From the IMG/VR virus record IMGVR_UViG_3300031851_000091, positions 1 through 33,686 of that record: a DNA stretch of 33,686 nt; one strand, written 5' to 3'. The stretch comes from a virus. Numbering within the stretch: position 1 is the stretch's first letter; every line of letters begins with the position of its first letter. The notes below the pieces were generated by a model. It did not search any database and was not told the origin of the DNA. It saw only the letters and a program-made list of their open reading frames with translations. The position numbers were made by a program, and so were the translations under genes. This document shows, one piece after another, positions 1 to 33,686 of the stretch.

Positions 1-260
1 TTGCTTAGGCCTGCGGTAGCTGCTCTAGGCTTTTGGTTCATCTCCACCCCCGTTAGCTAATCGGAATTCGGTAGAATGAATAATCTCCCGCTCCTTTGTA
101 CTAAACGGACCGCCCTTGCTAGGCGCTTTCCATAGCAGAGTCTTAACGTCGTTATCCAAAGAAAACCATTCCTCGGACGCAGAGCTTAGATCGCCCAATG
201 ATATGCCCGCCTTGATAGCCATGACCGACTCGCCATAGGCTAGCATCGTAGCCGTGTTCT
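1..260. repeat. Left copy of the terminal direct repeat
   Basis: The first 260 bases match the last 260 bases (33427-33686) in the same orientation, with four substitutions at 33, 52, 101 and 133 of this copy. The repeat carries the 3' half of the annealing-protein gene and the start of the next small gene. It gives a circle or unit genome of 33,426 bases. A physical terminal repeat of one molecule would normally be identical, so the mismatches point to two strain variants joined in one assembly. Confidence 0.95.
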
Positions 261-4668: not shown

Positions 4669-4926
4669 TTATTTCTTTGTAGACTTAGCGCCACTACACT
4701 TCCACCGCTTTCGGCTTAGGTTGTTAGGCGTGTTAGGGTCGTTCTGCTTTGCTTTCGATAAGCGCTTCTTGATCCCGAGAGATCTAGCGCAGTATGAGTC
4801 ACCCTTGCTAGTTCCGGGTTTAACTCTAGCCCCACCATCGCTAGCCTTACCGGCCTGCCCATAGCTGACCTTCTTGCCCGACGCTGTGACCTTTACTTTG
4901 GCCTTACCCTTTCTTGGTGTTGCCAT
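4669..4926 (-). CDS. Small very basic protein, 85 aa
   Basis: The product is rich in lysine and arginine throughout (RKGKAKVKVTASGKKVSYGQ) and contains SYCARSLGIKKRLSKAKQ and NNLSRKRWKCSGAKS, with two cysteines about 30 residues apart. Such short basic proteins occur near capsid genes of environmental phages and may bind DNA or RNA, but no function is established to my knowledge. It is the first gene after the capsid terminator, with a GAGG site at good distance from ATG 4926. Confidence 0.65.
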   Translation of the reverse strand: MATPRKGKAKVKVTASGKKVSYGQAGKASDGGARVKPGTSKGDSYCARSLGIKKRLSKAKQNDPNTPNNLSRKRWKCSGAKSTKK

Positions 4927-12733: not shown

Positions 12734-14584
12734 TTATCCGAATATTGATGCGCCGGCTTGCATCCAATCAAACAAGCCTGGCTGCTTAGTATTGGTCTGA
12801 GTCTGCTGCCCGGTCTGAGATCCACCATAAGCGCCTAGCTGAGTCTGTAGTGCTTGCTGAGGTGAGCCTGTGTAGCCTCCGTACTGAGCCTTAGCTGCCT
12901 CAATTAGTGCTTGCTGCTGTAACTGCTGCTGTAGGCCTGCCTGAGCTTGTCGGTCCATTATATCAGTAGCCATACCGAAGCCAAGGTTGCCTGTCTGAGC
13001 TAAGTTACCGGCAGCGTTAAGTCGTAATCCTGCGCCTTGTATACCGGCCTGCTGATTAGACTGCTGCGCCTGCATCATGGCGTTCTGGTTTGCTATAGCT
13101 GCCTGATTAGATGCTGCTGCACCGAACTGACCCGCTTGGTTTAAAGCACCCATGTTTGCAATGTTGGTCTGTGTGCCTAGCTGAGCGTTTTGCAGTGCGG
13201 CAGTGTTGCCCGCCTGTGCGCCGAACTGAGACGCTACGTTGCCTGCTTGGGCACCGAACTGCGCCGCTGCGTTCTGCTGTGCTGCGTTCTGAAGTGCTGC
13301 TTGGGTGCCTAGCTGAGCATTCTGGAGACCTGCGACATTCTGCGCTTGAGCACCAAATTGCGATGCTTGATTTTGAGCCGCTGCGTTCTGCAATGCCGCT
13401 ACGTTTTGCGCCTGAGCACCGAACTGACCTGCCTGATTTTGAGCCTGAGCACTAAACTGAGCCGCTGCGTTCTGCTGTGCTGCATTCTGCAAGGCTGCAA
13501 CATTTTGAGCCTGAGCACCGAATTGAGCCGCTTGATTCTGGGCTGCCATATTAGATAGATTTGTCTGAGTTCCTAGCTGAGCATTCTGTAATGCTGCTTG
13601 AGTTCCTAGCTGCGCGTTTTGTAGGCCCGCTACGTTCTGCGCTTGGGCGCCAAATTGAGCAGCCTGATTTCCTGCTGCTTGGTTAGCCATCTGAGCTTGC
13701 TGACCGAGGTTCGCAGTTGTTGTAGCTGCCTGTAGGCCTGTGGCTTGATTAGCAAGGCCCGCCTGCATGCGTGTAGCGATGTCCTGCTGCGCTGCCTGCT
13801 GAGCCTGTGTGAAGCCTGCCTGACGCAATCCTGCCGCTGTGCGAGCTGCCTGCTCTGCGAAGGCTCGATTAGTCTCAGCCTCTGCAATACCCTGGCGTGA
13901 ACCACCAAACGCACCTGCTGCCTGAGCCTGAGCACCACCTAGATTCTGCTGCATCAATCGCTGACGCTCGAGGTCAGATAGAGACTGCTGTACTACTTGG
14001 TTTTCGTAAGGATTAAAGTAGGGGTCTAGGCTAGTGCCTGCTAATTGCCCTGCTTGCACTCGCTCTGAGGTTACAGGACCAACACCGGCAATACGCTCTG
14101 CGTCATAGCCCTGTGCGGTAGCTCTCTCTGCTGCCGCTCGTTCTGCTGCTGCTTGCTGAGCTGTATACCCTTGTGCTGCCGCATTTTGAGCTGTATATCC
14201 TTGAGCTGTATAGCCTTGAGCTGCTGCGTTTTGAGCATTGTAGCCTTGAGCCGACGCTTGCTGAGCTGCTGCGTCTGCCGCAGTGTAGCCTCCTGCCGTG
14301 TAGCCTTGAGACCCTGCTGTTTGAGCAGCTGCTTGAGCAGCGTTATATCCTTGCGAGCCAATCTGAGCCGCTTGAATATTTATCGGGTTGTAGTTCATTG
14401 CAGCCGCTTGACCTGCAGCGCCTTGACCGACAGCCTTCATAATTGTTTGAGCAGCACTACCCGCCCCATCTACTACAGGGTTGCCAAACTGCTTTACAGA
14501 TTGAGGCGTGTTAGCCTGAACCATAGTAGGTGTTTGGTTTTGTTTATTCAGTGCAGCTTGTACGCCGCCAGTTGCGCCTGCCAT
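12734..14584 (-). CDS. Low-complexity Ala/Gln/Asn repeat protein, probably virion-associated
   Basis: This 616-residue protein is dominated by alanine, glutamine, asparagine and glycine. Residues 70-160 contain repeated AQGYTA or QGYNA units. Residues about 195-255 form a non-repetitive core with DPYFNPYENQVVQQSLSDLE and GAFGGSRQGIAEAETNRAF, a motif common in structural proteins of environmental phages. Residues about 270-480 carry many degenerate copies of QFGAQAQNVAALQNAQLGTQ. The C-terminus has glutamine runs. It is probably a long helical or fibrous internal or tail protein. Repeat copies are conserved in protein but differ at synonymous sites, which argues for selection on the sequence. 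Confidence 0.65.
   Translation of the reverse strand: MAGATGGVQAALNKQNQTPTMVQANTPQSVKQFGNPVVDGAGSAAQTIMKAVGQGAAGQAAAMNYNPINIQAAQIGSQGYNAAQAAAQTAGSQGYTAGGYTAADAAAQQASAQGYNAQNAAAQGYTAQGYTAQNAAAQGYTAQQAAAERAAAERATAQGYDAERIAGVGPVTSERVQAGQLAGTSLDPYFNPYENQVVQQSLSDLERQRLMQQNLGGAQAQAAGAFGGSRQGIAEAETNRAFAEQAARTAAGLRQAGFTQAQQAAQQDIATRMQAGLANQATGLQAATTTANLGQQAQMANQAAGNQAAQFGAQAQNVAGLQNAQLGTQAALQNAQLGTQTNLSNMAAQNQAAQFGAQAQNVAALQNAAQQNAAAQFSAQAQNQAGQFGAQAQNVAALQNAAAQNQASQFGAQAQNVAGLQNAQLGTQAALQNAAQQNAAAQFGAQAGNVASQFGAQAGNTAALQNAQLGTQTNIANMGALNQAGQFGAAASNQAAIANQNAMMQAQQSNQQAGIQGAGLRLNAAGNLAQTGNLGFGMATDIMDRQAQAGLQQQLQQQALIEAAKAQYGGYTGSPQQALQTQLGAYGGSQTGQQTQTNTKQPGLFDWMQAGASIFG
13130..13680 (-). repeat. Degenerate in-frame repeats inside the Ala/Gln/Asn-rich gene
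   Basis: This stretch encodes six exact QFGAQA units plus variants (QFSAQA, QFGAAA), spaced irregularly and mixed with LQNAQLGTQ units. Copies near 13285-13360 and 13583-13655 encode nearly the same peptide but differ at many third codon positions, so they are old repeats, not recent duplications. Confidence 0.8.
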
Positions 14585-18188: not shown

Positions 18189-20156
18189 CTATGCTATCGC
18201 TAAGAAGATGTATGTGCCGCCACTGGCGTTAAGCGCAGCAGGAGCAGATGATGTTACTGTAAAGCCACTCGATAGTGGGTCAATGTAATCTGTGTTAGTG
18301 ACTTCGGCTGCTGTAGAGTTCAATAAGAGATACGGATCGTTACCTGCAACAATGCCTCTTACGCTGTCATAGACGTACCAATCGCCAGTAGAGTCTGTAC
18401 GCTTGATAAGTATGAATCTAGCACCTGCCGAGAAGCCACAGTCTACGTTTAAGTCTGAACCTGTACCTGTGTAGCTGCCTACTTTGCTTACTCCTGCTAG
18501 TGTGGCGAAGAGGTAGGCTATGTATGTATCACCAGAGCTATTATTTACGTCTTGATAATTCCCAAGCGTAAAGTTTGTTGTGGTAGGCTGAGCTTTAAAA
18601 ATTGATGAAGTAGTATATGCTAAAGAATTTGACGCAGCATTGTTTAAATTTAATTTGGCTTGAGTAAAATTTGTTGCGGAAAATTCAGTGCCTACAAACC
18701 ATCCTACTGCGCTTGCGTTATTTCGTCTTTTAATAATAATTAATTCTGGGATTACACCAAGATTATGATTTACTTGATAGCCTTCACTACCATTCCCAGT
18801 ATAAGCCACCATATCAAAGAAGCCTGTGGCGCGTTTGAACATATGAGCAAAAACAGAGGTATTAGCTGACTCTCCAGATGGCCCTGCTCCGACATTGGAA
18901 TCAAAAGACACTGTGGTATCTGCTACTTCTGCTGCCGTGGTGTTTGTAATAAGTTTTGTTTCTCCTAAAAGGCGAGTGTGTGCCCTGTTTTCAAAAGAAG
19001 CAGATAATAAATAGCGAAGATACATATCCACAGGGAAGCCACTGATAAACTCTGCTAGCGTACCGCCTGAGCTTGCTCTAGTGTCTGCCATAAAAACCTC
19101 AGTCCCAGACTCAGGAGTCTTCATTGGTCTGCGGATGGCTATGTAGATGTAGTCGCGACTAGAATAGTTAGTAGCTACGTTTCCGCTCGTTAGCCTAAAT
19201 CCATTAGCATATGGCTCTAAAAAATCAGTATCTGTTACTGATGGATTGCTTCTGTTTGCATCTAGAGATTCATCATTACCGCCTACAGTCATACCTCTCA
19301 TTACATCAAACATATCCCAGTTATCAGCGTTAGAAGATGACTTAATAATTACAAACTGTGCTTCCCAGCCAAGGTTTATTTCTTGTGTGCTGCCATTACC
19401 AGTATAACTCCCACACTTAATAATATTCTCGCTGCCATCGTCTCCAAAGCCTCCTGCGTCTGAGGCGAATAGGTAGGCTACGTAGGATTCTCCAGGATTG
19501 TTAACGTAAGTACTAGTTCCTAATGTAAACACAGAGTCAGTAGGAGCAGTGTCATTCCACTGACCCGAATCATCTGCTCTTGCGCCTGTTGTAAAAGATA
19601 TACGGTAATCTTCTGGTGCTGAAGCATCTATACCACGGTGATATATAGACCAAGGACGAGCTTCACCTGCTTGATATTGCTTTACTATAATCATTCCCGG
19701 TACAGCGCCAAGATTATGGGCTATCTCACGCCCTGCAACGCCATTCCCAGTATAAGTCACAACATCAAAGAACTTCTCAGCCTTGCGGAATGTCCATGAG
19801 GCAATGCTTTGACCCGTATCGTTTTCTGACCCAGCATAATTAGCGCCCGTAAAAAACCCATTTGTATTAAACGATAAGGCTGTTCCTGTATTTATTTGTT
19901 GTGCCGCAGTAGTATTTGAGCGCAACACCGCCCCAGCGCCTCTTTCAGTATCATATAAACAGTTATTATCGGAAGTTGATCTTGATTTGCACCATACCAA
20001 CCCACCTTCTGTAGAAAGATCAATGCCGTTTACGATGTTCTGTCCTGCCGCTCCAGTACCAGTATACAAATAAGTCGAGAAGACATCCTCAACGTACCCG
20101 AGAGTGCCACCTGCATTACCCGCAGCAGCTGTTAGAGCTTTAGTTAATTTGCTCAT
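18189..20156 (-). CDS. Large tail fibre / receptor-binding-like protein
   Basis: The 655-residue protein is made of repeated beta domains. Four related segments occur: TYTGNGVAGREIAHNLGAVP, SYTGNGSTQEINLGWEAQF, AYTGNGSEGYQVNHNLGVIP and SYTGTGSDLNVDCGFSAGAR, each followed by an (I/V)(I/L)(I)K strand. Two longer units therefore seem to be duplicated. This YTGNG...HNLG layout is common in fibre or spike proteins of aquatic phages. The DNA at about 18590-19990 is visibly more AT-rich than the flanking genes, which suggests exchange of host-range sequence. It has an AGGAG site and is followed by the chaperone-like gene. Confidence 0.75.
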   Translation of the reverse strand: MSKLTKALTAAAGNAGGTLGYVEDVFSTYLYTGTGAAGQNIVNGIDLSTEGGLVWCKSRSTSDNNCLYDTERGAGAVLRSNTTAAQQINTGTALSFNTNGFFTGANYAGSENDTGQSIASWTFRKAEKFFDVVTYTGNGVAGREIAHNLGAVPGMIIVKQYQAGEARPWSIYHRGIDASAPEDYRISFTTGARADDSGQWNDTAPTDSVFTLGTSTYVNNPGESYVAYLFASDAGGFGDDGSENIIKCGSYTGNGSTQEINLGWEAQFVIIKSSSNADNWDMFDVMRGMTVGGNDESLDANRSNPSVTDTDFLEPYANGFRLTSGNVATNYSSRDYIYIAIRRPMKTPESGTEVFMADTRASSGGTLAEFISGFPVDMYLRYLLSASFENRAHTRLLGETKLITNTTAAEVADTTVSFDSNVGAGPSGESANTSVFAHMFKRATGFFDMVAYTGNGSEGYQVNHNLGVIPELIIIKRRNNASAVGWFVGTEFSATNFTQAKLNLNNAASNSLAYTTSSIFKAQPTTTNFTLGNYQDVNNSSGDTYIAYLFATLAGVSKVGSYTGTGSDLNVDCGFSAGARFILIKRTDSTGDWYVYDSVRGIVAGNDPYLLLNSTAAEVTNTDYIDPLSSGFTVTSSAPAALNASGGTYIFLAIA

Positions 20157-21783: not shown

Positions 21784-22404
21784 CTAATAGCTCCTGATCT
21801 TTAATCGTAAACCAGAGCCGCCAGACTTGGCTTTATCGCTCTGCAAATTAGTTCCTGCTACAGCACCAGAGTATAACACACTCCAGACCTGCATTCGGGC
21901 GTCGTCCTTCAAGTATGGGGCAGACTGAGTCAGCGATCCGTACAGGTAGGCATCCGGTGACATCTCTAGCAGCCAGTTGGAGGCGTTAGAGTCTGATAGC
22001 TGTTCTAGCTCTGCGTAGTACAGTAGCTCTCCGCTATAGGTAGTATCGGGCGTAGGATAGACCTCTATAGCCTCACCTGACACAGCGTAGTAGCGTGGCT
22101 TGCCCTGGGCGTCGTTAGTGTCCATGCGGTATTGCAGCATGTCGTCTAGCGATAGCAGCTCTAGCCTTGATGACTTGCCGTCGTCTAGGTGAAAGCGAAC
22201 AGGCTCGAGGAAGTCTGCCGGTAGCTGCGAGTACCTGGTGTCTATCTGACCCTCGGACCGCTTCTGCATCTTGTAGTGACGCACCTCACGCTCCATCTGA
22301 GCCTCTGCCAGAGAGATGAACGTAGGGATGATCGCCGTTAGATCGTCCCGGTTGAGGAAGTCAGCTATTGTAGACTTCAGCTCTGTGTATGTTGTGATTG
22401 CCAT
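21784..22404 (-). CDS. Head-tail adaptor protein (SU10 adaptor-like)
   Basis: The 206-residue protein fits the phage adaptor family that docks below the portal in short-tailed phages such as SU10 and T7. The N-terminal motif TTYTELKSTIADFLNRDDLT with IPTFISLAEAQMEREVRHYK is the recognisable helix pair. The middle part is beta-rich (YSQLPADFLEPVRFHLDDGK), and the end has a LEMSPDAYLYGSLTQSAPYL helix. An AGGAC site precedes ATG 22404. In this genome it is far from the portal gene, on the other side of the tail genes. Confidence 0.8.
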   Translation of the reverse strand: MAITTYTELKSTIADFLNRDDLTAIIPTFISLAEAQMEREVRHYKMQKRSEGQIDTRYSQLPADFLEPVRFHLDDGKSSRLELLSLDDMLQYRMDTNDAQGKPRYYAVSGEAIEVYPTPDTTYSGELLYYAELEQLSDSNASNWLLEMSPDAYLYGSLTQSAPYLKDDARMQVWSVLYSGAVAGTNLQSDKAKSGGSGLRLKIRSY

Positions 22405-22417
22405 GATTGTGTCCTGT

Positions 22418-23950
22418 TTACATCATCACGTCGAATATAGACTGCGGATTGTACACCTTGGTCTTTGGCGTAGATGACAGATCAAGAAGGCCTCTGACAG
22501 CATCGCGTATAAATGATGGCGCTGCTAGTTCTCTTTCCCCTGTCTCAATGTCTCTTCGGAACGGTAGAATATCGCCGTACTCGTAGCCGGGCTCTGGTCT
22601 TGGGTCCATGCCGATAGCTCGCATTCTAGCATCAACCTCTTGGTTGTGACGCGCTGCCGATTGAGCCTGCAAGTAATCCATAGGATCACCCGCCCCTTGG
22701 CTATCTGCTGCGACCATTGCAGCCATAAGTCCCGCCTCTGGTCTTACAAATGCAGTACCCTCAAATTTAGATCTAGCAGCCAACCTTTCCTCTGGAGAAG
22801 CATATCTTTCTACAGGAATGCCTTTTGATTGAAGAATGTTTATAGTCGAATCTGGGGTATCAATCGGCACTATTGCGCCGCCAAACTCACCAAGATCAAC
22901 AGGCCTCATAGGCTTAGATTCAAAATACTGAGTTGGAGAAGATGTTAAATTAGACGCAAATGACTCAAGCTCAGAAACGATGTTTTCAGGAACGTCCTTA
23001 AACCCCTCTCTCTCAAGAGATTGCCTCATTCCAAGCCTTCCGGAGTTAGCTATAGCTGCTCCAACGTCATCCCTCATTTGCCAAGAAGAGTCAGGCCATG
23101 AATAAAACTGCTGAAGAGAGTCCTGAAGATCAAGAAGTAAATTGTCATTGCCTGTATTTGACTCAAGCGTCTCAGTAGATAAGAGTCCCTTTGCCTGCCT
23201 TGCTTCTTCTAAAGTGTTTAATCTTGGCTGCAATGAAGCTCTTATTTTCCCAGCTCCAAAAGTTGAAGTATCCTCAGTACCAGAACCAGTGCTCTTTTTC
23301 ATGTAAGAGACAATGTTTTCGTTTGTAAAAGGCTTAATGTTTACATTTCTAGATTTTTTTGAAGAGGCATCAAAGTACAAATCAGGATCAAGATATTTAT
23401 CCATCTCCTTATCTTTCCATGAATCAAATGCTTCCCTGTTTGACTCCCTAAACTGCCTTACCTCACTTAATTTGATGCCTTCAGGTATATCTAATCCTAC
23501 ATCTTTGCCAAACTTTCTAATTGCACCTTCTGAAAAAAAGAAATTATCAAAGTTGTTTTGAAGCGATGAAGGAGAGCCGCTCGGATTTTTACGAGAAAGC
23601 TCAGACAAAGCATACTCGGCTTCCGCTCTATAAACAGGCCCTATATCCTTGTAATCGTCTGCAAATTTTTCAGCGGCTCCTTTGGTTGGAAGCCTAAACG
23701 GTCTAGGTGACCTAACGGTGTAAGCATCGCTAGACCACATCGCGTTGGCTTTGTTAGCCTCTGGAGCTAAAAGCTCTGGCCTTCCAACAAGTGTAATATC
23801 GCCGAAATTCTCAAATGGAATATCTTGCTTGGTTACGCCGATTGAAGGCGCAGGTATGCCGCCGAGCTGCTCATATCTAGCTATAGCTTCTGGGCTTGTA
23901 TTATGTAGGAAGTTCAAGAGGCCTTTTACAGCCTTGCCTGTGCCTGCCAT
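22418..23950 (-). CDS. AT-rich gene; N-terminus resembles a polyvalent-protein domain
   Basis: I do not recognise the whole 510-residue protein. Residues about 20-85 (ARYEQLGGIPAPSIGVTKQD, then FENFGDITLVG, then SSDAYTVRSPRPF) resemble the GG-x-P-x-PSI-x-V ... FGDI-x-L ... DAYT-x-R-x-P motif set that I associate with domains of large polyvalent proteins of phages and conjugative elements, which are injected into the host. The middle is charged and helical with no catalytic motif seen; the C-terminus has FIRDAVRGLLDLSS. The DNA is AT-rich (16 G+C of 60 at 23341-23400, against 35 of 60 at 24061-24120 in the terminase). It may have its own promoter at 23978-23986. A transferred, virion-ejected anti-host protein is inferred, not shown. 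Confidence 0.6.
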   Translation of the reverse strand: MAGTGKAVKGLLNFLHNTSPEAIARYEQLGGIPAPSIGVTKQDIPFENFGDITLVGRPELLAPEANKANAMWSSDAYTVRSPRPFRLPTKGAAEKFADDYKDIGPVYRAEAEYALSELSRKNPSGSPSSLQNNFDNFFFSEGAIRKFGKDVGLDIPEGIKLSEVRQFRESNREAFDSWKDKEMDKYLDPDLYFDASSKKSRNVNIKPFTNENIVSYMKKSTGSGTEDTSTFGAGKIRASLQPRLNTLEEARQAKGLLSTETLESNTGNDNLLLDLQDSLQQFYSWPDSSWQMRDDVGAAIANSGRLGMRQSLEREGFKDVPENIVSELESFASNLTSSPTQYFESKPMRPVDLGEFGGAIVPIDTPDSTINILQSKGIPVERYASPEERLAARSKFEGTAFVRPEAGLMAAMVAADSQGAGDPMDYLQAQSAARHNQEVDARMRAIGMDPRPEPGYEYGDILPFRRDIETGERELAAPSFIRDAVRGLLDLSSTPKTKVYNPQSIFDVMM

Positions 23951-23958
23951 GTTATGTC

Positions 23959-23986
23959 CTCATGTGCCGATAACATGAGTATAACA
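23959..23986 (-). promoter_or_regulatory. Extended -10 promoter and inverted repeat before the AT-rich gene
   Basis: In the 40-base gap after the large terminase gene the minus strand has TGTTATACT (23986-23978), an extended -10 element. Overlapping its downstream edge is a perfect 7-bp inverted repeat, CTCATGT (23979-23973 on the minus strand) and ACATGAG (23965-23959), with a 7-base spacer. The repeat could be an operator or a leader hairpin. No good -35 is visible. Confidence 0.45.
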
Positions 23987-23990
23987 CAGA

Positions 23991-25268
23991 CTAAGCGATC
24001 CCTCGGATGTTGCGACGGATAGGTGCTCCCCAGACGTGTGTAGGCTTGTAGCCCACTGCCAGGTAGCGGAAGGAGTCAGATGCGTGTGAGGTCCAATCGT
24101 GTAGAGGTCTGCCACGCCAGTGCTTACCGTTCTCGTCCCAATCCCTGCGGTACTGCCTTAGAGCGTCAATGCCACGCTCGCACTTCTCCTGGTCAAACCA
24201 ACACTGCGGGATCATTGAGCGGACCTGCTGTATACCGTCCTCAATGCTGAGCATAGGCGCTACTATGACGTTGCTAAGGCCTAGAGACTGCAATACCTCT
24301 AGCCTAGACTTGCCAGTGCCTAGCTCCTTGACCCGGACGTCGTGCGGCAGGATATGTTGGTCGTAGGTGTAGCCTTTGCCCTGGAGCATCTGCACATAGT
24401 GATCTAGGGCGCAGCCAGAGTTCTCGTAATAGTCAATGATTCGGATCTCTTTGCCGATATACTGCGCGAACCAGATCACGGTCGTGTCGGCCATACCAAG
24501 GTCCCAAGAGGTCACCACAGCAGTAGACTTGTCGTAGGGCACAGCGCAGAGCCTGCCTTCTGTCTTAGCCTGTAGCATCTCTAGAGCGTAGTAGCTGCCC
24601 TCAACGTGGATGCGGTAGTCGCCCTCCCAGACGTGCTGATAGATGTCTGGGCGCTTCTCTAGGTCCTCTAGCCTTGCCTGCTCTAGTACATCAGGGAACC
24701 ACGGATTGTCAGACCACTGGAGTTCAGCGATCTTGGCGTCCTTTGGCGGGTCCTCACGGAATCGTTTGTGCGTTGCTGAGTTCTTGCTCTCCGGGTTCCA
24801 CGTCACCCAGATCTCTGAGTCGTGCTCTCGGACCGACGGTATGAGCTTCTGCCAGGCTGTTTCTGTAACGCTCTCTGCCTCGTCTACCCAAGCCAGTAGT
24901 AGGCGTGACTTAGATTTGAGAGAGTCTACGTTAGTGCGGAGGCCGGCGAATGCGTAGTTGATCCTGCCGTCCTTGCTGCGGATATACCGCTCACCGATCT
25001 CGTAGTAATCAGCCAGGAACGACACAGAGCTGATAGCTGCCTTAATCTCCTCGAGGGATGACTCACTGAGAGAGTTGAGGTGCTCACGACCGCAGAGGAT
25101 GATACCTGCCCTGCCCGCCTTGCCTTCCTGGTAACCCCTTAGAGCTGTCATTAGAGCGAAGGTGCGAGTCTTGCCTGATCCACGGCCACCATAGGCGCCA
25201 CGGTATCTAGCCTTGCCCTCAAACACAGGCACTAGCTTGTCGGGGATATCAATCGTCGCTGCTGTCAT
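23991..25268 (-). CDS. terL: Terminase large subunit
   Basis: This is the ATP-driven DNA packaging motor and nuclease. Walker A is GGRGSGKT at about residues 27-34, and Walker B is LLLAWVDEAE with the catalytic glutamate. A coupling-type segment VTWNPESKNS follows. The RNase H-like nuclease domain shows SWDLGMADTTVI and the terminal acidic motif HDWTSHASDSFRYL. The family resembles Terminase_3 (PBSX/P22-like). I chose ATG 25268 (MTAATIDIPD, 425 residues); an upstream TTG at 25292 would add eight residues but lacks a ribosome-binding site. It overlaps the small-subunit gene by 20 bases. Confidence 0.95.
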   Translation of the reverse strand: MTAATIDIPDKLVPVFEGKARYRGAYGGRGSGKTRTFALMTALRGYQEGKAGRAGIILCGREHLNSLSESSLEEIKAAISSVSFLADYYEIGERYIRSKDGRINYAFAGLRTNVDSLKSKSRLLLAWVDEAESVTETAWQKLIPSVREHDSEIWVTWNPESKNSATHKRFREDPPKDAKIAELQWSDNPWFPDVLEQARLEDLEKRPDIYQHVWEGDYRIHVEGSYYALEMLQAKTEGRLCAVPYDKSTAVVTSWDLGMADTTVIWFAQYIGKEIRIIDYYENSGCALDHYVQMLQGKGYTYDQHILPHDVRVKELGTGKSRLEVLQSLGLSNVIVAPMLSIEDGIQQVRSMIPQCWFDQEKCERGIDALRQYRRDWDENGKHWRGRPLHDWTSHASDSFRYLAVGYKPTHVWGAPIRRNIRGIA

Positions 25269-25641
25269 CTGCCCGCACTCCACGCAGTACAATACTGGTC
25301 GGAGCCAATGCGCCGTCAGAGCTTGTCACGTCCTGCTCAACGCGATCTGAGTAGCCGTGCTTAGTCAGTATCAGCTTGGTGATAGTCGGGTTAAAATCGC
25401 CTGTGAGACCGTTAGAGAACAGCTCCTTGGCTTGCCTTGCCATTAGGTCGTCCAAAATGTGTAAAAATTCTTCGTTTTCGGCCTTCCAATTGTATAGTGT
25501 CTTCCTTGATACATTTAGATACACAGACAATCCCTCAATGGTTGGGATCACTTCACCATGCAATAAATACTCTTTTGATGCGTATCTACCTGCCTGCTCT
25601 ATTAGAGCGTCGGTCAGCTTAGATGGGCGTCCTGCGGTCAT
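25249..25641 (-). CDS. terS: Terminase small subunit (P22 gp3-like)
   Basis: The 130-residue protein recognises packaging-site DNA and recruits the large subunit. It begins with GRPSKLTDALIEQAGRYASK and contains PTIEGLSVYLNVSRKTLYNW, an HTH, then LDDLMARQAKELFSNGLTGD with NPTITKLILTKHGYSDR. This order matches the P22 gp3-type small terminase family, associated with headful packaging. It forms an ATGA overlap with the 52-residue gene upstream and overlaps terL downstream. Confidence 0.88.
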   Translation of the reverse strand: MTAGRPSKLTDALIEQAGRYASKEYLLHGEVIPTIEGLSVYLNVSRKTLYNWKAENEEFLHILDDLMARQAKELFSNGLTGDFNPTITKLILTKHGYSDRVEQDVTSSDGALAPTSIVLRGVRADDSSDD

Positions 25642-33316: not shown

Positions 33317-33467
33317 TTAATTTCTTCCAGTTTGAGTTAATAAAATTATTCAGTGCGACACAGTCGTCGCATATCAAGTAGTCTTTCTGGTTCTTGATTC
33401 TTGCAAGGCAGCACTCACAGGTCTTATTGCTTAGGCCTGCGGTAGCTGCTCTAGGCTTCTGGTTCAT
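33297..33467 (-). CDS. Small zinc-finger protein, 56 aa
   Basis: The product has TCECCLARIKNQKDYLICDDC, two C-x2-C pairs separated by 15 residues, a small zinc ribbon, followed by a helical basic tail. I chose ATG 33467 (MNQKPRAATA): an upstream ATG at 33479 exists only in this copy of the terminal repeat and is ACG in the other copy (position 52), so the downstream start is the one both variants share. It overlaps the end of the annealing-protein gene by 17 bases and the SSB-like gene by 20. Confidence 0.75.
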   Translation of the reverse strand: MNQKPRAATAGLSNKTCECCLARIKNQKDYLICDDCVALNNFINSNWKKLNGIRQH

Positions 33468-33686
33468 CTCCACCCCCATTAGCTAATCGGAATTCGGTAG
33501 AATGAATAATCTCCCGCTCCTTTGTAGTAAACGGACCGCCCTTGCTAGGCGCTTTCCAAAGCAGAGTCTTAACGTCGTTATCCAAAGAAAACCATTCCTC
33601 GGACGCAGAGCTTAGATCGCCCAATGATATGCCCGCCTTGATAGCCATGACCGACTCGCCATAGGCTAGCATCGTAGCCGTGTTCT
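33427..33686. repeat. Right copy of the terminal direct repeat
   Basis: This is the second copy of bases 1-260, differing at 33459, 33478, 33527 and 33559. In the annealing-protein frame two changes are silent and two alter the protein (Lys to Glu in the tail and Ser to Thr). That pattern looks like natural strain variation rather than random sequencing error. Confidence 0.95.
33451..33686 (-). CDS. Annealing-protein gene, 3' part (cut by contig end)
   Basis: This is the C-terminal portion of the protein encoded at 25-639, read from the right end of the contig to TAG 33451. It ends GGGDEPEA instead of GGGDEPKA and has PFTTKE instead of PFSTKE. Its 5' end is missing only because the window stops. 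It represents the same gene at the junction of the permuted genome, not a second paralogue. Confidence 0.9.
   Translation of the reverse strand, partial: NTATMLAYGESVMAIKAGISLGDLSSASEEWFSLDNDVKTLLWKAPSKGGPFTTKEREIIHSTEFRLANGGGDEPEA

What the first reader, a model, noticed from the sequence alone, without database searches (positions are those of the whole stretch)
22418..23990. AT-rich polyvalent-like cargo gene inserted between terminase and adaptor
The 510-residue protein starts with a GG-x-P-x-PSI-x-V / FGDITL / DAYT-x-R-x-P motif set that I associate with polyvalent proteins delivered by phages and conjugative elements. Its DNA is far more AT-rich than its neighbours (16 versus 35 G+C per 60 bases in sampled lines). 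It has its own extended -10 and inverted repeat upstream. Together this looks like an acquired gene for a protein ejected into the host, perhaps against defences. The rest of the protein matches nothing I know.
Basis: partly seen in the sequence, partly recalled or inferred. Interest (0 to 1): 0.65.

Follow-up and report, generated by a model that had tools for sequence, protein, structure and literature searches.

The report
Swappable effector gene in marine phages
Between its DNA-packaging and structural genes this virus carries one interchangeable cargo gene whose middle is swapped between near-identical phages while its ends stay constant; here the middle is labelled a nuclease, but its predicted shape looks more like an enzyme that tags molecules with ADP-ribose.

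Summary
The gene is real (22418-23950, minus strand, 510 aa, between terminase and a phrog_2941 structural gene). Only its middle is foreign: DNA is shared with relatives to about 23944 (7 nt into the ORF) and again from about 22744; the 1.2 kb between is the AT-rich part. The slot is filled in 52 of 52 distinct contigs where it is complete and collinear. In 20 typed close relatives it holds four unrelated middle modules, reassorted at least 8 times on the terminase tree; tails and heads are shared between different middles. The leader taken for the gene's own promoter belongs to the slot. The window's module (residues 12-401) matches Pfam PBECR5, a predicted RNase, but that model stops before an invariant second block (Y-F-E-x-K, 342-346). 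Two AlphaFold models put the supposed catalytic His on a first strand, not a helix; their best PDB matches are ADP-ribosyltransferase folds spanning a 250-residue helical insert (Z about 7: suggestive only). Best reading: an exchangeable, probably virion-delivered effector, likely ADP-ribosyltransferase-like, with a constant C-terminal tail, working like T4 internal proteins. Virion loading, target and catalysis are untested.

The parts
22418..23950 (-). slot effector gene, 510 aa
   Evidence: ORF; PBECR5 match; relatives
23951..23990 (-). slot leader: TGTTATACT at 23978-23986 within the 13-mer 23974-23986, hairpin CTCATGT/ACATGAG at 23959-23979, then GAGGACA before the ATG
   Evidence: shared by slot types M1-M4; fold z -2.06; promoter activity not shown
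22745..23943 (-). exchanged segment (AT-rich middle)
   Evidence: no DNA match to 12 compared relatives between these breakpoints; 42.4% G+C for 22751-23950
22748..23917 (-). PBECR5 / ART-like module, residues 12-401
   Evidence: alignment A2, 67 unique homologous domains, models
22940..23677 (-). helical insert, residues 92-337
   Evidence: secondary structure of the model
23903..23905 (-). codon of His16 (on strand 12-18)
   Evidence: 60 of 64, Gln in 4; strand in model
23843..23845 (-). codon of Ser36 (directly before strand 37-41)
   Evidence: 64 of 64; model
22919..22921 (-). codon of Glu344 (on strand 343-347, after the insert, outside the Pfam model)
   Evidence: 61 of 61; model; Pfam range
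22421..22744 (-). constant C-terminal tail C1, residues 403-510
   Evidence: 60-95% identical in slot proteins with other middles; diverged forms
23991..25292 (-). terminase large subunit, upstream border of the slot
   Evidence: phrog_3717
21784..22404 (-). phrog_2941 structural protein (ADAP), downstream border of the slot
   Evidence: isolates annotate relatives as tail tubular protein A

Best explanation
A fixed cargo slot between the terminase and the first structural gene downstream of it, in a group of small phages, holds one exchangeable effector gene. The slot's leader and first codons, and often a constant C-terminal tail, stay in place while recombination replaces the middle. In this genome the middle is a roughly 390-residue module that Pfam files as the nuclease PBECR5 but that most likely adopts an ADP-ribosyltransferase-like fold (candidate residues His16, Ser36, Glu344) split by a helical insert. 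The gene would be made late with virion proteins, loaded into the particle (perhaps through the tail), delivered with the DNA, and would modify a host macromolecule to favour infection. Shown: gene, slot, swapping, shared tail and leader, conservation. Predicted from models: the ART-like fold. Inferred: late expression, virion loading, delivery, NAD-dependent catalysis, host target.
For: Slot filled in 55 of 55 complete collinear loci, 52 distinct contigs. Four unrelated middles in 20 close loci, at least 8 changes on the TerL tree; window and L005 are 97% identical in TerL DNA and 99% in ADAP DNA but share no middle. Breakpoints just inside the start codon and at about 22744. Tail C1 shared by different middles. 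Slots of other clades match ART-PolyVal, LPD23, DUF7178, PBECR5, all from polyvalent proteins except DUF7178, whose function is unknown. PBECR5 homologs found without reference to the slot lie before ADAP in 29 of 78 loci, 19 more being cut by the contig end. Two models with His on strand 1 and best PDB matches to DarT, Tpt1 and a ubiquitin-bound effector across the insert. Glu344 and Lys346 61 of 61. Relatives inside giant phage proteins.
Against: VIA Z values are 6-7.4, below the level 8 the tool calls more than a common arrangement; Foldseek alone finds nothing in the PDB. No sequence-profile match to any ART family. Residue-level superposition of His16/Ser36/Glu344 on an ART active site was not seen. 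His16 is Gln in 4 of 64. No virion data. M4 proteins (7 of 20) carry neither tail. Seven relatives (L024-L030) and two isolates have no slot cargo.
Confidence: 0.5

Rival explanations
1. The module is a metal-independent RNase of the BECR fold, as Pfam's name says, which after delivery cuts host, phage or CRISPR RNA.
For: All 35 members of A2 match PF18814; a His and a Thr/Ser (T78, 64 of 64) are conserved, the pair Iyer et al. name for PBECR (PMC5512222 section 19).
Against: In both models the His is on the first strand, not in an N-terminal helix; the invariant Y-F-E-x-K block lies outside the Pfam model; best structural matches are ARTs.
Confidence: 0.15
2. The slot protein is a structural or internal-core protein of the virion whose variable middle is not an enzyme.
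For: Position among structural genes; constant tail; every complete collinear locus has one.
Against: Middles are unrelated in phages with near-identical structural genes, and several match enzyme-like domains; invariant polar residues fit catalysis.
Confidence: 0.15
3. The protein acts inside the cell late in infection, for example to exclude other phages, and is never packaged.
For: Late-gene position; rapid exchange fits phage-phage conflict as well.
Against: The same module occurs inside giant phage proteins of the type thought to be virion-delivered (PMC5512222); a common tail on different effectors suggests a common destination.
Confidence: 0.17
4. A recent one-off insertion of an AT-rich foreign gene with its own promoter.
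For: Local low G+C.
Against: Shared leader, native ends, slot never empty in collinear relatives, AT-rich homologs elsewhere.
Confidence: 0.03

Closest known systems
Polyvalent proteins of phages and conjugative elements (Iyer et al. 2017, PMC5512222)
   Same: Same domain (PBECR5, Pfam) and others of that repertoire in the same slot; encoded among packaging and virion genes; relatives inside giant multidomain proteins
   Different: Here a single catalytic module plus a tail, about 500 aa; one fixed slot with exchanged middles; the BECR assignment itself is doubtful
T4 internal proteins Ip1-Ip3 (PMC12373910, passages seen)
   Same: A hotspot of unrelated effectors that share only one terminal segment
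   Different: In T4 the shared segment is an N-terminal packaging leader; here it is a C-terminal tail whose role is unknown
ADP-ribosyltransferase superfamily: DarT, Tpt1/KptA, ubiquitin-modifying effector of Chromobacterium violaceum
   Same: Best structural matches of two models across the insert; conserved residues on strand 1, before strand 2 and on the strand after the insert
   Different: No sequence-profile match; a helical insert of about 250 residues; Z below 8
Helicobacter phage polyvalent protein jhp1044 (PMC5512222 section 19)
   Same: Mosaic effector with many domain arrangements among close phages
   Different: There domains are shuffled within one large protein; here whole middles are exchanged between a fixed leader and constant tails

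Membership tests
PBECR5 (Pfam PF18814) | profile score above Pfam's cut-off | tested here: met
   59.1 bits against 25; 35 of 35 A2 members match at E up to 1
BECR-fold RNases / PBECR | His in the N-terminal helix | tested here: not met
   in both predicted models the conserved His lies on the first strand; models, not experiment
BECR-fold RNases / PBECR | Ser/Thr in strand 4 | tested here: inconclusive
   T78 is T or S in 64 of 64 but lies between modelled strands 69-72 and 85-88
BECR-fold RNases / PBECR | BECR fold among structural matches | tested here: inconclusive
   none listed, which only re-align Foldseek's top chains
ADP-ribosyltransferase superfamily | ART fold | tested here: inconclusive
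   top rows of two independent models are ARTs, Z 6.0-7.4; supportive, below Z 8
ADP-ribosyltransferase superfamily | active-site residues on strands 1, 2 and 5 | tested here: inconclusive
   His16, Ser36, Glu344 conserved 60/64, 64/64, 61/61 on or next to strands in that order; superposition not seen
ADP-ribosyltransferase superfamily | sequence-profile match to a known ART family (helpful, not defining) | tested here: not met
ADP-ribosyltransferase superfamily | NAD+ binding and ADP-ribose transfer | not testable with these tools
   needs an assay
Polyvalent proteins | two or more domains of disparate activity in one polypeptide | tested here: not met
   one recognised module plus a tail of unknown role in the window protein
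Polyvalent proteins | encoded with packaging/virion genes | tested here: met
Polyvalent proteins | transferred into the host with the DNA | not testable with these tools
   needs virion proteomics and delivery assay
T4-type internal proteins | unrelated effectors sharing one terminal segment | tested here: met
   tails C1 and C2, head of L013/L020/L022; not met by M4
T4-type internal proteins | N-terminal signal that directs packaging into the capsid | tested here: not met
   the widely shared part is C-terminal; a role in packaging is not testable here

The most novel reading that the evidence does not exclude
The phage 'nuclease' family PBECR5 is not a nuclease but a divergent ADP-ribosyltransferase (His-Ser-Glu) split by a large helical insert, and these phages load it and other effectors into virions through an exchangeable C-terminal tail, a mirror image of the T4 internal-protein leader.
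Probability: 0.35. Interest if true: 0.8.

Novelty: new variant of a known kind. Interest (0 to 1): 0.62.

Why it matters
If right, an annotated family (phage proteins named 'nuclease') carries the wrong enzyme label, and a short conserved tail gives a sequence handle for finding unknown delivered effectors: whatever stands in front of that tail is a candidate. Near-identical phages with different slot contents are a natural allele-replacement series for asking what a delivered effector does for a phage. A cultured phage with the same slot exists (Octadecabacter Antarctic DB virus 2).

Tried and rejected
An AT-rich foreign gene with its own promoter: rejected, because the leader is common to all slot types and the exchanged part ends inside the ORF. 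Composition as proof of recent transfer: rejected, because 11 of 12 homologous ORFs are AT-rich relative to the rest of their locus and the fibre gene is equally AT-rich.

A host-defence gene: no PADLOC match for the window protein. Phg_2220_C in residues 175-194 (E 0.24): treated as chance. Profile matches of A2 to PDB sequences (mitofusin, lemA; E 0.088 and worse) fall in the helical insert: treated as chance. Foldseek against the PDB: best E 2.2 and 0.22 for the two models, no credible match. BECR folds are absent from the VIA tables, which is not evidence against them. The -10-like 13-mer occurs once exactly in the window; six matches at up to 3 mismatches against 8.44 expected, so no evidence of a repeated promoter.

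The genome-contig scan with alignment A1 could not run because no stretch was conserved enough; I did not repeat it, so cellular homologs were not surveyed. A DarT profile search of the window's record found nothing. TerL relatives were capped at 80 of 120. Loci dropped before the slot count: of L001-L084, 55 entered; seven (L024-L030) have the adaptor inverted; the others lack the end of TerL or the start of the adaptor. Three contigs were fetched twice (L002/L018, L007/L015, L008/L010). L004 (tail only) and L019 (start of an M4 gene) were not in the trees, and L001 is in the TerL tree only.

Full report
WHAT IS THERE. The window is a 33,686-base virus record with a 260-base end repeat of 98% identity. 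On the minus strand run a terminase small subunit, terminase large subunit (TerL, 25292-23991), the gene of the finding (23950-22418, 510 aa) and a phrog_2941 structural protein (22404-21784, here called ADAP). Residues 15-119 match Pfam PBECR5 at E 7.9e-16.

THE SLOT. I fetched viral loci encoding relatives of the window protein (9) and of TerL (80 kept of 120). In the 55 loci (52 distinct contigs) where TerL and ADAP are complete enough and collinear, the interval always holds a same-strand ORF of 464-1123 aa. In 20 typed loci of the close clade the window's own middle, M1, occurs in 2 (window and L001); the others carry three unrelated middles, here called M2 (9), M3 with DUF7178 (2) and M4 (7). 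M2 has no Pfam match but is found in 43 ORFs across the clades. More distant slots carry ART-PolyVal, LPD23, DUF7178 or PBECR5; the ART-PolyVal hits are below that family's own cut-off. Gp6 of the cultured Octadecabacter Antarctic DB virus 2 lies between TerL and an ADAP relative and has a weak ART-PolyVal match (E 0.00077, below cut-off).

MOSAIC ENDS. Window DNA matches the 12 relatives compared through TerL and into the leader or first codons (to between 23976 and 23934), and resumes at 22744-22741 for L002, L003, L005 and L006, at 22612 for L007 and L008, and at 22426-22415 for the others. So a segment of about 1.2 kb inside the ORF is what differs, and it coincides with the AT-rich stretch (42.4% G+C; the tail 51.7%). 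Tail C1 ends the window protein and M2 proteins (60-95% identity); diverged forms end slot proteins of the 65-66% TerL clade and of L102. Tail C2 ends M2 proteins L014 and L022 and M3 proteins L013 and L020; one head begins L013, L020 and L022. M4 proteins have neither tail. On the TerL DNA tree of 20 loci the four middle types need at least 8 changes; with tails counted 10, against a mean of 10.8 for shuffled labels (71 of 200 shuffles as low), so the combined labels show no clustering by descent. On the ADAP tree (19 loci) the middles need at least 6; with tails counted 7 against 9.8 (1 of 200 as low), so there the labels do cluster somewhat.

LEADER. A leader with TGTTATACT and a CTCATGT/ACATGAG hairpin is nearly the same before M1, M2, M3 and M4 genes; in L003, L005 and L006 it is replaced after the -10-like part. 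Folding the window's leader gives -15.2 kcal/mol, z -2.06. It is a feature of the slot, not of this gene. That it is a promoter is not shown.

THE MODULE. A scan with an alignment of the module returned 78 viral loci. In the positional check of 78 loci (L001, L038, L089-L164), 29 have ADAP within 1.5 kb downstream, 19 are cut by the contig end and 30 lie elsewhere, many in ORFs of 1,000-3,600 aa. Alignment A2 (35 rows) and a profile search of all held loci (67 unique domains; rows with a gap left out at each position) show His16 in 60 of 64 (Gln in 4), Ser36, Gly50, Pro63 and Asp75 in 64 of 64, Thr or Ser at position 78 in 64 of 64, Glu344 and Lys346 in 61 of 61. The Pfam matches stop before the second block: in seven members they end at residue 86-217 of segments of 349-563 residues.

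FOLD. AlphaFold2 gave a model of the window protein (mean pLDDT 82.7; most ten-residue blocks of 11-400 at 85 or more; tail under 75) and of an independent homolog out of a giant protein, L112 (91.4). Both have strand-helix-strands, a helical insert (residues 92-337 in the window protein), then strand-strand-helix-strand; the conserved His is on the first strand in both. VIA-align against Foldseek's top chains ranks, for the window model, DarT of Thermosipho africanus DarTG (Z 7.2, 141 aligned, 3.8 A), yeast tRNA 2'-phosphotransferase Tpt1 (7.0, 96, 2.6 A), E. coli DarT1 with NAD+ (6.8, 143, 4.4 A) and three entries of a Chromobacterium violaceum effector bound to ubiquitin (6.8, 6.1, 6.0), all aligned across the insert; the next row (5.9) is a match of helices. 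For L112 the first five rows are four entries of the same effector and Tpt1 (7.4-6.5), then helix matches from 6.2 down. That these proteins belong to the ART superfamily is recalled knowledge, apart from what the titles say. All Z are below 8, so this is suggestive; it gains weight because two models and unrelated ART families agree. The BFVD search finds 11 phage proteins at E 1.5e-5 or better, several named nuclease.

READING. Iyer et al. [quoted passage not shown] the first is not seen in the models. They give ARTs of polyvalent proteins as carrying residues on strands 1, 2 and 5 (section 9, read whole); His16, Ser36 and Glu344 lie on or next to strands in that order, and that Glu344's strand is strand 5 is inference. 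I favour an ART-like enzyme (about 0.6) over a BECR RNase (about 0.15), the rest being neither. ARTs encoded near terminase and portal genes and likely packaged in heads are an established theme (PMC9503650, passages seen), and T4 Ip1-Ip3 share only a packaging leader (PMC12373910, passages seen). By analogy the slot protein is delivered with the DNA and the tail is a candidate loading signal. These last steps are inference.

IN PRINT. 'PBECR5' occurs in 0 papers of the held library; 'PBECR' or its long name in 2. Two searches for exchangeable ejected effectors listed 6 and 3 papers, none whose title or abstract start describes this slot. Most subscription papers and all preprints are missing from that library, so this is no proof of novelty.

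LIMITS. Seven related loci with 71-72% TerL have ADAP inverted and no slot module. In Pelagibacter phage HTVC106P and Methylophilales phage Venkman TerL is followed directly by a portal-like gene. Cellular genomes were not surveyed. The target of the enzyme is unknown, and nothing here shows that it acts on a defence system.

Noticed in passing
window 18189-20156: The tail-fibre gene (655 aa) is as AT-rich as the slot gene (43.3% G+C) and holds two 86-base copies of an internal repeat at 71% identity.
   Followed up: no
window 1-260 and 33427-33686: End repeat of 260 bases at 98%, not 100%, identity, so the two ends of the record differ at a few bases.
   Followed up: no
L003 4557-4712, L005 3764-3919, L006 1229-1384: In these three the slot leader is replaced by about 150 bases that begin a small Cys-rich ORF before the slot gene.
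   Followed up: partly
window 4669-4926; L032-L037, L039, L040: An 85-aa basic protein next to the capsid gene in the window has a clear look-alike directly after the slot gene in another clade.
   Followed up: no
L024-L030: In seven relatives (TerL 71-72%) the adaptor and following genes are inverted relative to the terminase, with no slot module found.
   Followed up: partly
L007 4831-6333 and 42 other ORFs: Slot module M2 (about 315 aa) is the commonest occupant across clades, has no Pfam or PHROG match, and in L119, L123 and L124 lies in a separate ORF of the locus that also carries the PBECR5-like gene.
   Followed up: partly
L166 2752-4233 (Octadecabacter Antarctic DB virus 2 gp6); L080 1664-3388: Slot proteins with a DGRHR or DGHHR stretch that recalls ParB-like domains (recalled, not tested), gp6 also with a weak ART-PolyVal match.
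   Followed up: partly
window 12734-14584: A 616-aa protein coded by degenerate repeats in steps of 33 bases, rich in Ala, Gln and Asn.
   Followed up: no
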